Origin: Medicago truncatula
Lineage: Eukaryota; Streptophyta; Magnoliopsida; Fabales; Fabaceae
Assembly: GCF_003473485.1 (NCBI RefSeq)
Contig: NC_053044.1
Span: forward strand, 53,794,091-53,858,090
Direction of reading: 5' to 3'
Length of the DNA stretch: 64,000 bases
Shown here in pieces: positions 51,595 through 64,000 of this stretch. A model generated the notes under the pieces. The model had not been told where the DNA came from and ran no database searches. It was given only the letters and a program-made list of their open reading frames with translations. A program made the translations under genes and the position numbers. Each line of letters opens with the position of its first letter. Position 1 is the stretch's first letter.

Positions 51595-52767
51595 CTAAAT
51601 CTTAGATGCCATTTGGAATCTTCCAATCCTAAAATGTTTCAAGTCAACCTCATTAGTTTCCCCATCCACCACAAGTTGAGTCAATATCTTACCAATAACT
51701 GGAGCCATCTTAAACCCATGACCCGAAAACCCAACACCCAAAACCACATTTTTTCCAAACTCACCACCCAAAAAATCAATCACAAAATCCTCATCTGGTG
51801 TCATTGAATACATGCAAGATTGTTTCACCACTGGCTCACTTGAATCAACAACCCCACCAAATATCCCTTCAACCCATTCCTTCAACTCATTCATCATCAC
51901 AACTGAGCCCCACGGTCTCTTATCCGGGTCACACAACCGACCACCATGGACCGCGGCTTTAATCAAACCCGGATACTCCAAAACGGGTGTTCCGTATACA
52001 TAAGCCTTACCAAAGCTAGCAAAAGTTGGAAAATCACCACCAATTACGAATTTACCTTCATGCCCTTTTTTAATCCTCCAGTAACAAACATGAGTCTCCA
52101 CGGGTTTTATCGGAATTTCAACTCCGCTAATTCTCTTAACTAACTTATTCGCCCACGCTCCAACAGTTACCACACATTTTTTACCGCGAAACTTTTCACC
52201 ATTCGCGGTAAAAACTACAACACCTCCATCGTTTTTGATATCAGTCACCTTTGTGTTGTCTTTCAAAACAGCACCGTTTTTGTAGGCGAGTGTCTGAAAC
52301 ATGGCAGTGGCTTTCGTGGGCTTCAGTATGCCACCGTATTCAGTGGACAAGCCCACCCAGTTTGCCGGTAAGTTAAATTTCCCGGAGAATTTCTCGGCAA
52401 CTTGCTGGTGGTTGAGGAGCTGGTGAGGGATTTTATGTTTCCGGCAGTTTTCGACGACGGAATGGACGACTGGGTCGTTGAATGGGCCCATGTCAAGGTG
52501 CTGGGCTTTGAAATAAACGTTGTAGCCCACTTGGGCCTGGGCTTCTTTCCAAAGTTTGTATGATTCCATCACCATAGGGTAGTAATGGTTTTGAATATAG
52601 GTAGCACGAATTGTGCGGGATTCACCGTGGGAAGAGCCACGGTGGTGGAGAAAGTCAAATTGTTCAAGCAAGAGTGTTTTGAGACCCCTTTTGGCTGCTT
52701 GGTAGGCGGTGGAACTTCCCATGACGCCGGCTCCGACAATAATCACGTCAAACTGAGAATCCTCCAT
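51595..52767 (-). CDS. Sarcosine/pipecolate oxidase-like FAD enzyme, copy 1
   Basis: This is an intronless gene for 390 residues, taking MEDSQFDV as start; an ATG four codons earlier (52779) is possible but does not match the paralogue. The FAD-binding GAGVMG follows a VIIV strand near the N-terminus, then LLLEQF and HHRGSSHGESRTIR, the family's His/Arg substrate region. C318 in CMYSMTPDEDF matches the cysteine that holds FAD covalently in monomeric sarcosine oxidase. The enzyme class demethylates sarcosine or oxidises pipecolate with H2O2 release; the Arabidopsis relative is peroxisomal. The C-terminus is ASKI: SKI is a weak but plausible PTS1. It is a tandem partner of the gene at 61764, and the two proteins agree over their whole length except the last few residues. 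Confidence 0.92.
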   Translation of the reverse strand: MEDSQFDVIIVGAGVMGSSTAYQAAKRGLKTLLLEQFDFLHHRGSSHGESRTIRATYIQNHYYPMVMESYKLWKEAQAQVGYNVYFKAQHLDMGPFNDPVVHSVVENCRKHKIPHQLLNHQQVAEKFSGKFNLPANWVGLSTEYGGILKPTKATAMFQTLAYKNGAVLKDNTKVTDIKNDGGVVVFTANGEKFRGKKCVVTVGAWANKLVKRISGVEIPIKPVETHVCYWRIKKGHEGKFVIGGDFPTFASFGKAYVYGTPVLEYPGLIKAAVHGGRLCDPDKRPWGSVVMMNELKEWVEGIFGGVVDSSEPVVKQSCMYSMTPDEDFVIDFLGGEFGKNVVLGVGFSGHGFKMAPVIGKILTQLVVDGETNEVDLKHFRIGRFQMASKI

Positions 52768-59965: not shown

Positions 59966-61763
59966 ACTTAAAAAGAATTCTCACAACCACTAATGTTATA
60001 TAGCCTATAAGGAATTATTCTGAAGTTTAATGCTCAAGTCTCTTATCTAGTCGATGCAGTGCAAATTCGCAACCACTAATCACTCATTTAAAAAACCTAA
60101 TGTTATATATAGCCTATAAGGAATTATTCTGAAGTTTTTTAACCAATACATGGCTATGTCCTTTTGTATAAAAACTTTGATTTGGACCTTCACTAACATA
60201 TGACGCCTACCAAAACCTTCCGTGTATCCAGCCGCCGGTCAAACTAAAGGCCCTTTAATTTGACAGATATCTCTAAAGTCATTCTCGGGATAAATCAATC
60301 TACAATATTATAGCTTATAAAAAGATGGCAATCTCATGCAACTATCAACAAGTAATACAACCATATACCTCGATTCCTCAAGCACTATATTCCGAGGACT
60401 TGCCCTCAGTGACATATGATGCCTAACCAAAACCTTCCGTGTAACCAGCCAGCCAGTCAAACTAAAGGCCCTTTAATTTGACAGATATCTCTAAACTCTA
60501 AAGTCATTGTCGGGATAAATATCAATCTACAATATCATAGCTTATAAAAAATGATAATCTCATGCAAATATCAACAAGTAACACAACTATATACCTCAAC
60601 TCCTCAAGCACTATATATTGTGAGGACTTCCCCTCATGAACACTTCATCAAATAGCAAGGAAAGGAAAATAACGTAGTTAAGTTTACAGTCACTGCTTAA
60701 TGCGGTGCACAGAAACTCTTAGAATCTTGGTTAGAGGAGCCCCAACCTCAAAGGCGAAATCATGTCTGCCTGAGGGCATCTAGGTTGCACTAAAGCATAG
60801 ATAAGCATTTCAAACACCATTACAATCTATTGTCAGGCATACAAATGAATACTTTATCCTCATACCTCCCTCAAAAGTAACTATAGCAGGGCACTGAGGG
60901 ACAAGGTTTATGAAATTCAGTAAGTGTAGTTTTATGGCAGATGTGACACTGTCTTGCTTCATTCCATAAGGATTTCTACATCAAAAAACCTTTAAATCTA
61001 ATGCAGTTCATGGAAAAACTTCAAAAATTTCCGTACTCATACAAGCACTCATAGACTTGTAACAAGCAACAGCCTTCATAATTTCATGCGGGTTTTACTC
61101 ATGTAAACAAAACCTCAAATAGCAAGGGATTGAGCAGATAATTCAGGTATATATATTTCTTAAATTTTGTAGACCTAAAATTCAAAATAAATTATTATAC
61201 CAATAAAAGAATTGAAAATAACGGGAAAAATAAAATAAAGAAGGAAGACCATAAACTCAATTTATCCCTTACTAAAAGAAATTCCGTCCTAAAAATGTAT
61301 CTTACTTGAGTTGCGCTGTACCATTGCCGATATAACTATTATGACCTTGTAACCTCTAACTGGTGATAATTAAGAATTGTCAAGTGATGTTTTCGTTTTT
61401 CTGGTTCATATTTATTCAAGCAGCCAATGAGAAAGTTGTCATAACACACTCAACTATCTATCCCAAAAACAACCACACCTTTTAACTCATGAACTTATTA
61501 TATCCTCTATAAAACTTTGAATACTATTACTACCGTCATAATTTCAAGAGATCAATCCAACATCAAGCTTCCGATAATACATTTGCAGACTCCAATTGCA
61601 ATTAACTTCAATAACTTACTATTCCATCCAATAATCACAATTATAACAGATGTATTCACATTCAACACAGATTTTCCTCAATTATTGCATTAGGTATAGC
61701 CGAAACATTAAATCTTAATCTCAGAAGAAGAAAAAAATGCAAGACAAGAAAATTACCTAAAGC
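59966..61763. other. Spacer between the LINE and sarcosine oxidase copy 2
   Basis: No gene is seen. ATGTTATATAGCCTATAAGG-type phrases with TTATTCTGAAGTTT occur at about 59993 and 60099. The clearest structure is the tandem duplication at 60190-60636. The last few hundred bases should include the 3' UTR of the sarcosine oxidase gene. Confidence 0.4.
60190..60636. repeat. Tandem duplication, 216-base period
   Basis: ACATATGACGCC at 60196 recurs as ACATATGATGCC at 60412. The two units share CCAAAACCTTCCGTGTA, GTCAAACTAAAGGCCCTTTA, GACAGATATCTCTAAA, TCTACAATATYATAGCTTAT and CCTCAAGCACTATAT. The copies differ by scattered substitutions and small indels. Confidence 0.9.
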
Positions 61764-62939
61764 TTAGAAGTCACTTTTGAATCTTCCAATCCTAAAGTGT
61801 TTCAAATCAACCTCATTAGTTCCCCCGTCCACCACAAGCTCGGTCAAAATCTTCCCAATAACAGGAGCCATCTTAAACCCATGACCCGAAAACCCGGCAC
61901 CCAAAACCACATTTTTCTCAAACTCACCACCCAAGAAATCAATGACAAAATCCTCATCCGGAGTCATTGAATACATACAAGCCTGTTTCACAACAGGCTC
62001 GGATGAATCAACCAACCCACAGAATCTCCCTTCAACCCACTCCTTCATCTCATCCATCATCACACCTGCCCCCCACGGTCTCTTATCCGGGTCACACAGG
62101 TTACCACCGTGAACTGCCACCTTAATCAAACCTGGAAACTCAAAACTTGGCGATCCATACAATAAAACCCTACCCAAGCTAGCAAACGTTGGAAAATCAC
62201 CACCAATTGTAAACTTCCCTTGGTGCCCTTCCTTGATCCTCCAGTAACATAGGTGAGTTTCCAATGGTTGAATCGGAATTTCAACCCCACTTATCTTCTT
62301 TACTAGCTTGTTCACCCAAGCTCCTACTGTCACAACACATTTTTTGCCACGGAATTTTTCACCTTTCGCAGTTAAAATAACAACGCTACCACCATCGTTT
62401 TTTATGTCTACAACTTCAACATTGTCGTTTAACACAGCACCGTGGCTACGCGCCAGTGACTGAAACATCGTTACAGCTTTTGTGGCTTTGATAACACCAC
62501 CGTATTCTGTTGAGAGACCAACCCAATCATCTGGAATGTCGATCCTGCCGGAGAATTTCTCGGCAACTTGTTCACGGCGGAGGAGTTGACAGGGGAGATT
62601 GTTTTGGCGGCAGTTTTCGACGACAGAGAGAATCATTGGATCGTTTGAAGAACCCATGTCAAAGTGATGAGCTTTGTAATAGACATTGAAGCCTGCTTGA
62701 GCTTGAGCTTCTTCCCATAATTGGTAGGATTTCATGACCATTTGGCAGTAATGTTGTTGAGGATAAGCTGCGCGAATTGTGCGGGATTCACCGTGGGAGG
62801 AACCACGGTGGTGAAGAAAATCGAATTGTTCGAGAACCAGGGTTTTGAGGCCTCGTTTGGCAGCGTAGTAGGCGGTGGAGCTTCCCATGACGCCGGCGCC
62901 GACAATAATGACATCATAATCGGAACCTGAAGACTCCAT
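61764..62939 (-). CDS. Sarcosine/pipecolate oxidase-like FAD enzyme, copy 2, PTS1 out of frame
   Basis: This is an intronless gene for 391 residues starting MESSGSDYDVIIVGAGVMG (GxGxxG at residues 14-19). HHRGSSHGESRTIR follows, and C321 in ACMYSMTPDEDF is the expected covalent FAD site. It is close to copy 1 throughout: from HHRGSSHGESRTIR to KHFRIGRF the two rarely differ by more than a few residues in a row. The reaction should be oxidation of sarcosine or pipecolate with H2O2 production. Copy 1 ends RFQMASKI, whereas this frame ends RFKSDF and stops. Shifting the frame by one base at the AAAA run just before gives ...VTSKL and a stop at 61757, i.e. a perfect PTS1. As written, the protein lacks a recognisable peroxisomal signal. 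It may be a real change or a one-base sequence error. Confidence 0.92.
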   Translation of the reverse strand: MESSGSDYDVIIVGAGVMGSSTAYYAAKRGLKTLVLEQFDFLHHRGSSHGESRTIRAAYPQQHYCQMVMKSYQLWEEAQAQAGFNVYYKAHHFDMGSSNDPMILSVVENCRQNNLPCQLLRREQVAEKFSGRIDIPDDWVGLSTEYGGVIKATKAVTMFQSLARSHGAVLNDNVEVVDIKNDGGSVVILTAKGEKFRGKKCVVTVGAWVNKLVKKISGVEIPIQPLETHLCYWRIKEGHQGKFTIGGDFPTFASLGRVLLYGSPSFEFPGLIKVAVHGGNLCDPDKRPWGAGVMMDEMKEWVEGRFCGLVDSSEPVVKQACMYSMTPDEDFVIDFLGGEFEKNVVLGAGFSGHGFKMAPVIGKILTELVVDGGTNEVDLKHFRIGRFKSDF

Positions 62940-63031
62940 CTTTTTTGATTGATTGATTGGTGAATGTGGTGAGTGATCGTTGATTTGATATTGTTAAGAT
63001 GAGAAATTGAGAATGAAGTGATAGAATATAG
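62940..63031 (-). promoter_or_regulatory. Short host promoter/leader of sarcosine oxidase copy 2
   Basis: Only about 90 bases of apparently unique sequence separate the ATG from the transposon-like sequence that begins at about 63032. No TATA box is obvious, so the promoter probably reaches into the element. Confidence 0.35.
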
Positions 63032-63300
63032 GCTTAATTGCACTTTTGGCCCTCTATGTTTTAAGAAGTTGCGATTTTGGCCCCCTAATTAATTAAAATA
63101 TAAAACAGCCTCTATGTATTGGATTTTTGGCAGTTTTGGCCCCCTAGATCAATTTTGACTCGGTCACGTGACACTTCAAAGCCGTCAGGTGTGCATTGTT
63201 TTAATTAAAAATAAATAAAAAAAACACATAAATTAAAATAATTAAATAAATGAAAAAAAACAACAAATAATTAAAAAAAAAAAATGAAGGAAATCATGTT
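63032..63300. mobile_element. Legume repeat of the CTTAATTGCACTTTTGGCCC type
   Basis: It begins AGGCTTAATTGCACTTTTGG, with CAGTTTTGGCCCCCTAGATC and GATTTTGGCCCCCTAATTAA following. Such TTTGGCCCCC repeats form the ends of a family of elements common in legumes. The partner end was not found in the window, so the right boundary is open. It contains GTCACGTGAC (63163-63172), a G-box palindrome. Confidence 0.5.
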
Positions 63301-64000
63301 TCAAAATCTGATAATCCCTCTTCTTCCTCTCATCTCTTTCTAAAACACTGATATTCTCTCTCTCCAAAACCCTTTGTTCCAAAATCTTGAAGCTTTATCA
63401 CCACCATGGATTTGCTCCGATTGAATATCTCTCGTATTCGAATTGTGACCAGAAACACGAGGAAGTAAAATGGCATTCTAATTTTTCAAACACAGGTAAA
63501 CTAGTTGTAACATTCAGGAACAGAGTTGATGAGGAAATATAAATAGAAACTATCATTATACTTTTAATAATGTAAACAGTATGCAATTGTTTCTAAATTT
63601 TTGGGAGATCATCAAATTGATAATACAGAGAGTTCTTATTCATGCATACAAGGTAACATGTAGGAGTTATTGTGTCTCGGATGATGAGTTTTAAAACACT
63701 TTTTAACTGATTCAAGAATATATATATATTCTTACTATTAAAGATTATTCATATATTCTTGCATTATTCATGCTGACACTGATAATATTGCATTTATAAC
63801 TGCAAATTAACAAATAACTGAGCAGTTTATAATAGATATACAGATAGGAAACGACGGAGTAAAGGAGGAAAAAAAAGAATTTATATGATAAATATATCAT
63901 GCTATTGGATTGTTAGGGAACAATGGAGGTGTAATTCTTATTCAAGTTATGTATAAGCAACATGCAACTAATATAGTTGCCTTGTTTTATGTCATTTATA
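63301..64000. other. Right edge of the window
   Basis: Pyrimidine-rich stretches (63310-63375) precede ACCACCATGG at 63409-63418, which looks like a good start context, but the frame closes at once. It may be the interior of the element that begins at 63032. No gene is supported to the end of the window. Confidence 0.35.

What the first reader, a model, noticed from the sequence alone, without database searches (positions are those of the whole stretch)
61755..61795. Hidden SKL peroxisomal signal one base out of frame in sarcosine oxidase copy 2
The annotated frame ends RFKSDF and a stop. One base shift at the AAAA run gives VTSKL and a stop at 61757, aligned with MASKI at the end of copy 1. 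The tract is one base longer than the copy 1 alignment needs. If real, the enzyme lost its PTS1 and may be cytosolic, producing H2O2 outside peroxisomes. If not, it is an indel in the assembly. Either way, the annotated terminus needs care.
Basis: seen in the sequence. Interest (0 to 1): 0.75.

Follow-up and report, generated by a model that had tools for sequence, protein, structure and literature searches.

The report
Peroxisome tag lost by one-base frameshift
In a legume genome, one of two sarcosine/pipecolate oxidase genes carries one extra base a few codons before its end, which pushes the "send me to the peroxisome" tag out of frame while the enzyme itself looks intact, so this copy may work elsewhere in the cell unless the extra base is a sequencing error.

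Summary
Copy 2 (62939-61764, minus strand) ends RFKSDF. One base out of frame the same DNA reads RFK-VTSKL-stop, TAG at 61759-61757. That frame is ancestral, not chance: the closest orthologue (94% identical) ends RFKVTSKV, the four nearest copy-2 relatives all end SK-x, and none of the 120 homologues printed ends SDF. Three of those four have V after the shift point, placing the extra base in the A run (61778-61775); copy 1 alone would equally allow an extra G.

The rest of copy 2 looks like a working enzyme: residues at recalled catalytic positions match bacterial monomeric sarcosine oxidase, and Ka/Ks against copy 1 is about 0.13.

Best reading: a real one-base insertion removed PTS1 from a constrained duplicate. 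Sequence error is not excluded; no reads could be examined. "Cytosolic" does not follow automatically: Arabidopsis SOX is reported as imported by a non-standard signal, and only 12 of the 86 remaining, mostly non-legume, homologues end in a validated PTS1 tripeptide. Presence of such a tripeptide changes at least 8 to 11 times on the legume tree. A transposon begins 91 bp upstream of the copy 2 ATG.

The parts
61764..62939 (-). Copy 2: plant sarcosine/pipecolate oxidase gene, 391 codons plus TAA, ends RFKSDF
   Evidence: (PF01266, E 2.5e-46)
61775..61778 (-). AAAA run that holds the extra base (ancestrally AAA by comparison with P0001, P0003, P0004)
61764..61766 (-). TAA stop of the frame as assembled
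61757..61774 (-). Displaced ancestral tail in the +1 frame: GTG ACT TCT AAG CTT TAG = VTSKL-stop
51595..52767 (-). Copy 1: paralogue with in-frame PTS1-like end RFQMASKI
63031..64000 (.). DNA transposon beginning 91 bp upstream of the copy 2 ATG; runs past the window end (1,466 bases in L013:222-1687)
   Evidence: ends read by eye
63022..63030 (.). Gene-side copy of the 9-base target duplication TAGAATATA (other copy L013:1688-1696)
   Evidence: read by eye

Best explanation
Copy 2 is a constrained, probably active, FAD-dependent sarcosine/pipecolate oxidase. A single A was inserted into an ancestral AAA run four codons before the end, which replaced the ancestral C-terminus VTSKL, a PTS1, with SDF. 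Shown: the frame relation, the homology of the displaced SKL, the SK-x ends of the nearest relatives, and the conserved enzyme core. Inferred: that the base is real; that import by the PTS1 route is lost; and that, since the related bacterial enzymes are monomeric (which would disfavour piggy-back import on copy 1), most of copy 2 stays in the cytosol unless an internal signal, as claimed for Arabidopsis SOX, brings it in.
For: One-base gap with homology on both sides. The four nearest copy-2 relatives end KVTSKV, NKTSKH, NVSSKL and NVASKV; the first, third and fourth are on the validated list, SKH is not. Copy 2 and P0001 are sisters (support 100/99) and copy 2 has the shorter end branch, 0.028 against 0.043. 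NG86 dN 0.131 and dS 1.03 against copy 1 over 384 codons. One core residue, S165, is unseen in 40 other legume rows. In the alignment to two MSOX chains copy 2 keeps the H, R, R (HGESRTIR), K and H (KVAVH), C and Y (CMY) and K (GHGFK) positions, which I recall as catalytic or FAD-binding. The indel lies in the last 15 of 1,176 coding bases, and only 1 of 22 homopolymer runs of 4 or more in copy 2 lies there.
Against: No reads, RNA-seq or second accession were available, and one-base homopolymer indels are a common long-read error (recalled). The library shows cluster representatives only, so an independently sequenced protein of this species could not be seen. A transposon 91 bp upstream of the ATG could mean weak or altered expression. 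Import by a non-standard signal is reported for the Arabidopsis enzyme.
Confidence: 0.62

Rival explanations
1. Assembly or sequencing error: the plant has AAA and copy 2 ends VTSKL in frame.
For: One-base difference in a homopolymer; nothing else in copy 2 is odd; the nearest relatives have the tag in frame.
Against: The run is only 4 long. Six longer runs (5 or 6 bases) and fifteen others of 4 in copy 2 leave the frame intact. Only 1 of the 22 runs lies where a shift is harmless to the enzyme.
Confidence: 0.25
2. Early pseudogene: copy 2 is losing function, the upstream transposon and the frameshift being first signs.
For: Transposon beginning 91 bp upstream of the ATG; a second copy exists that could cover for it.
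Against: No premature stop or frameshift in the core; only one odd core residue; end branch not longer than that of its sister; the transposon's inverted arms are only 82.5% alike, which suggests, but does not prove, an old insertion that the gene outlived.
Confidence: 0.06
3. Leaky dual targeting: +1 slippage at AAAA still makes some SKL-ending protein, as in yeast IDP2.
For: +1 shifts at all 13 boundaries tested end in listed tripeptides, 12 SKL and 1 FKL. Precedent in PMC4526572 (passages), including genes without runs longer than 3.
Against: The frame relation is fully explained as a relic; the run is short; no conservation of a hidden tag can be shown, because relatives have it in the main frame; no product data.
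Confidence: 0.07

Closest known systems
Plant peroxisomal sarcosine/pipecolate oxidase (Arabidopsis SOX; Goyer et al. 2004, seen only as a citation, paper not read)
   Same: Same family by homology; one homologue is named 'like AT2G24580' (that AT2G24580 is SOX is recalled). Flavoprotein that makes H2O2
   Different: Many legume copies end soon after the RF motif with a PTS1-like tripeptide, which copy 2 has lost. The Arabidopsis enzyme is said to use a non-standard targeting peptide
Yeast IDP2/IDP3 cryptic PTS1 in the +1 frame (PMC4526572, abstract and passages seen)
   Same: A PTS1 one base out of frame near the stop codon of a metabolic enzyme, with a duplication in its history
   Different: There a cytosolic ancestor gained targeting; here an in-frame PTS1 was displaced, and slippage is not shown
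Gain and loss of targeting signals after gene duplication in plants (PMC7086175, abstract and outline seen)
   Same: A duplicate loses an organelle signal
   Different: By its abstract that study measured chloroplast and mitochondrial proteomes; this is one peroxisomal locus with the causal base named
Bacterial monomeric sarcosine oxidase (PDB 1zov, 1el5)
   Same: Sequence family and the recalled active-site positions
   Different: Bacterial; no peroxisomal signal

Membership tests
Plant MSOX-type sarcosine/pipecolate oxidase | DAO domain (PF01266) over nearly the full length | tested here: met
   residues 9-368 of 391, E 2.5e-46, 159.3 bits against a cut-off of 27.9
Plant MSOX-type sarcosine/pipecolate oxidase | Residues at the covalent-FAD Cys and catalytic His/Arg/Lys positions (positions recalled) | tested here: met
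   alignments to 1zov and 1el5
Plant MSOX-type sarcosine/pipecolate oxidase | Oxidises sarcosine or pipecolate with release of H2O2 | not testable with these tools
   needs an enzyme assay
PTS1 protein | In-frame C-terminal tripeptide on the validated plant list | tested here: not met
   SDF is not among the 48; the displaced SKL is
PTS2 protein | RLx5HL-type nonapeptide in the first 50 residues | tested here: not met
   by eye on the translation; no scoring program was run
Cryptic PTS1 used by +1 frameshift (IDP2 type) | PTS1 and stop in the +1 frame near the stop codon | tested here: met
Cryptic PTS1 used by +1 frameshift (IDP2 type) | Hidden frame kept across species | tested here: inconclusive
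   the nearest relatives have the tag in the main frame, so a hidden one cannot be compared
Cryptic PTS1 used by +1 frameshift (IDP2 type) | Slippage product demonstrated | not testable with these tools
   needs a reporter or mass spectrometry

The most novel reading that the evidence does not exclude
Copy 2 is a mainly cytosolic SOX that still sends a small share to peroxisomes through +1 slippage at the new AAAA run: a mirror image of yeast IDP2, with a lost PTS1 kept in use as a hidden one, in a legume enzyme family whose PTS1 has changed repeatedly.
Probability: 0.07. Interest if true: 0.7.

Novelty: new member of a known kind. Interest (0 to 1): 0.4.

Why it matters
If the base is real, this is a clean natural test of relocalisation after duplication: two paralogues about 9 kb apart, one with a PTS1 and one whose PTS1 is out of frame by one base. 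It would move an H2O2- and formaldehyde-producing reaction (products from PMC9125320, passage) relative to catalase. The C-terminus of this family is unstable (25 of 39 legume-set and 12 of 86 other database homologues end in a validated PTS1 tripeptide), so this pair could also help to test how plant SOX without a PTS1 enters peroxisomes.

Tried and rejected
Stop-codon readthrough: the in-frame extension ends ENLC, not a PTS1; rejected. A -1 frameshift: none of the 13 boundaries tested ends in a listed tripeptide; rejected.

Extra G rather than extra A: allowed by copy 1, disfavoured by V in P0001, P0003 and P0004.

Further copies: the protein search of the own genome gave 2 matches, copies 1 and 2 (4 of 4 candidates scored). 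The DNA search with 401 bases around the 3' end gave copy 2 itself and a 47-base match in copy 1.

Independent sequence of this species: not reached. The protein library lists cluster representatives, and of each search only the best 120 of 6,032 and of 1,221 matches were listed. A paper search for the presumed assembly found 0 papers.

Papers on sarcosine oxidase with Medicago: listings only, plus one passage of PMC11705226, which names a sarcosine oxidase subunit alpha family protein, not this gene. PMC8154099: listing and two passages; listings, apart from the papers named above. I did not search for a report of this very frameshift beyond these calls, so I make no claim that it is unpublished.

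Rows dropped: P0031 (named partial) before the legume counts; P0114 was never put in the tree. Four rows with doubtful tails (P0002 SKH, P0014 and P0029 SKF, P0025 CRL) were left out in the second count of changes. The tree used 51 of 128 sequences (126 database rows and the two copies); the 86 rows called 'other' are simply all those outside the legume set.

Full report
WHAT IS THERE. On the minus strand the window holds two single-ORF genes for plant sarcosine/pipecolate oxidase: copy 1 (52767-51595) and copy 2 (62939-61764). A protein search of the whole own genome (42 contigs, 429.9 Mb; the window lies on contig C3) found these two and no other. The closest named relatives are legumes: Trifolium, Lathyrus, Cicer.

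THE TERMINUS. Copy 1 ends RFQMASKI. Copy 2 ends RFKSDF at TAA 61766-61764. One base out of frame copy 2 reads RFKVTSKL and stops at TAG 61759-61757. The DNA alignment of the copies has a single one-base gap here, with matching bases on both sides, to just past the old stop. The +1 frame is therefore the ancestral frame. The AAAA run is 61778-61775.

ORTHOLOGUES. The sister of copy 2, P0001 (94% identical, branch support 100/99; a 1,376-base contig without a name), ends RFKVTSKV. The next relatives end NKTSKH (P0002, Trifolium pratense), NVSSKL (P0003, Lathyrus oleraceus) and NVASKV (P0004, Cicer arietinum). None of the 120 rows printed ends SDF; four non-legume rows end KDF, about ten residues further from the core. 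V in three of the four nearest rows places the extra base in the A run. SKL, SKI and SKV are among the 48 experimentally validated plant PTS1 tripeptides; SDF and SKH are not (PMC3427985 Table A1, passages, appendix).

IS THE ENZYME INTACT? Copy 2 aligns with bacterial monomeric sarcosine oxidases of known structure over residues 7-386 and keeps the residues at the positions that I recall as catalytic or FAD-binding. Against copy 1 it shows dN 0.131 and dS 1.03 (NG86) over 384 codons; 154 of 249 differing bases are at third positions. Apart from the shifted tail, one residue (S165) is unseen in the other 40 legume rows. Over all 41 rows that number ranges from 0 to 27 in the core, and it depends on how near the nearest row is. 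The end branch of copy 2 is shorter than that of its sister (0.028 against 0.043).

REAL OR ERROR? The indel lies in the last 15 of 1,176 coding bases. Copy 2 has 22 homopolymer runs of 4 or more, 6 of them of 5 or 6, and only the one at codon 388 lies in that tail. A random error would rarely land there, whereas real frameshifts survive there. This favours a real change but does not prove it, since no reads could be examined.

DOES LOSS OF PTS1 MEAN CYTOSOLIC? Not necessarily. A review names sarcosine oxidase among proteins imported by non-standard targeting peptides, citing Goyer et al. 2004 (PMC3633942, passage; the original was not read). A pepper proteome paper says that 5 of its peroxisomal proteins lacked a PTS, and lists its SOX in a table of five proteins without a PTS column (PMC9125320, passages). 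In the legume set (41 rows: 39 from the database and the two window copies; the clade with support 100/99, without P0031) 26 end in a validated tripeptide. On the legume tree at least 11 changes of state are needed with all 41 rows, and at least 8 with 37 rows after four doubtful tails are left out. Those counts include copy 2, do not show direction, and database termini may be mis-modelled. Still, the loss in copy 2 looks like one case of a recurrent change rather than a singular event.

HIDDEN TAG STILL USED? Yeast IDP2 genes reveal a +1-frame PTS1 by slippage (PMC4526572, passages). In copy 2 a +1 shift at each of the 13 boundaries tested ends in SKL (12) or, at the stop, FKL (1), both on the list. 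Leaky dual targeting is therefore possible, but the relic explanation is enough, and there is no positive evidence for slippage.

UPSTREAM. A DNA transposon of 1,466 bases (L013:222-1687; window 63031 onward), with inverted arms of about 325 and 347 bases (82.5% alike), begins 91 bp upstream of the copy 2 ATG. It is flanked by a perfect 9-base duplication TAGAATATA (window 63022-63030 and L013:1688-1696, ends read by eye). A 421-base query from its gene-side part had 61 matches in the genome, with only 40 of 1,934 candidates scored. A 9-base duplication with long inverted arms is what I recall for Mutator-like elements. It may have altered copy 2 expression, which bears on whether the SDF protein matters.

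VERDICT. The likeliest account is a real one-base insertion that removed PTS1 from an otherwise constrained duplicate (0.62), with sequence error the main rival (0.25).

Noticed in passing
window 63022-64000 and L013:213-1696: Complete repeated DNA transposon (1,466 bases, inverted arms of about 325-347 bases, perfect 9-base target duplication TAGAATATA) beginning 91 bp upstream of the copy 2 ATG, in a TATA-like stretch; it may have changed the promoter.
   Followed up: partly
P0023 (Lupinus luteus), P0007 and P0117 (Sesbania bispinosa), P0028 (unnamed), P0067 and P0079 (Arachis hypogaea): Other legume-set SOX proteins whose tails lack a validated PTS1 tripeptide although near relatives have one, which suggests repeated loss.
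   Followed up: partly
window 51598-52767 against 61767-62939: Third-position differences between the copies fall to 6-8 per 32 codons in the last 96 aligned codons, against 11-21 before; possible gene conversion or stronger constraint at the 3' end.
   Followed up: no
window 60262-60640: Imperfect direct repeat of about 140 bases, copies about 240 bases apart, downstream of copy 2 (seen by eye).
   Followed up: no
homologues: Most legume-set SOX lack the ENPKGNVKDFEDQV-like tail seen in many other eudicot rows; their PTS1-like tripeptide follows the RF motif almost directly.
   Followed up: partly
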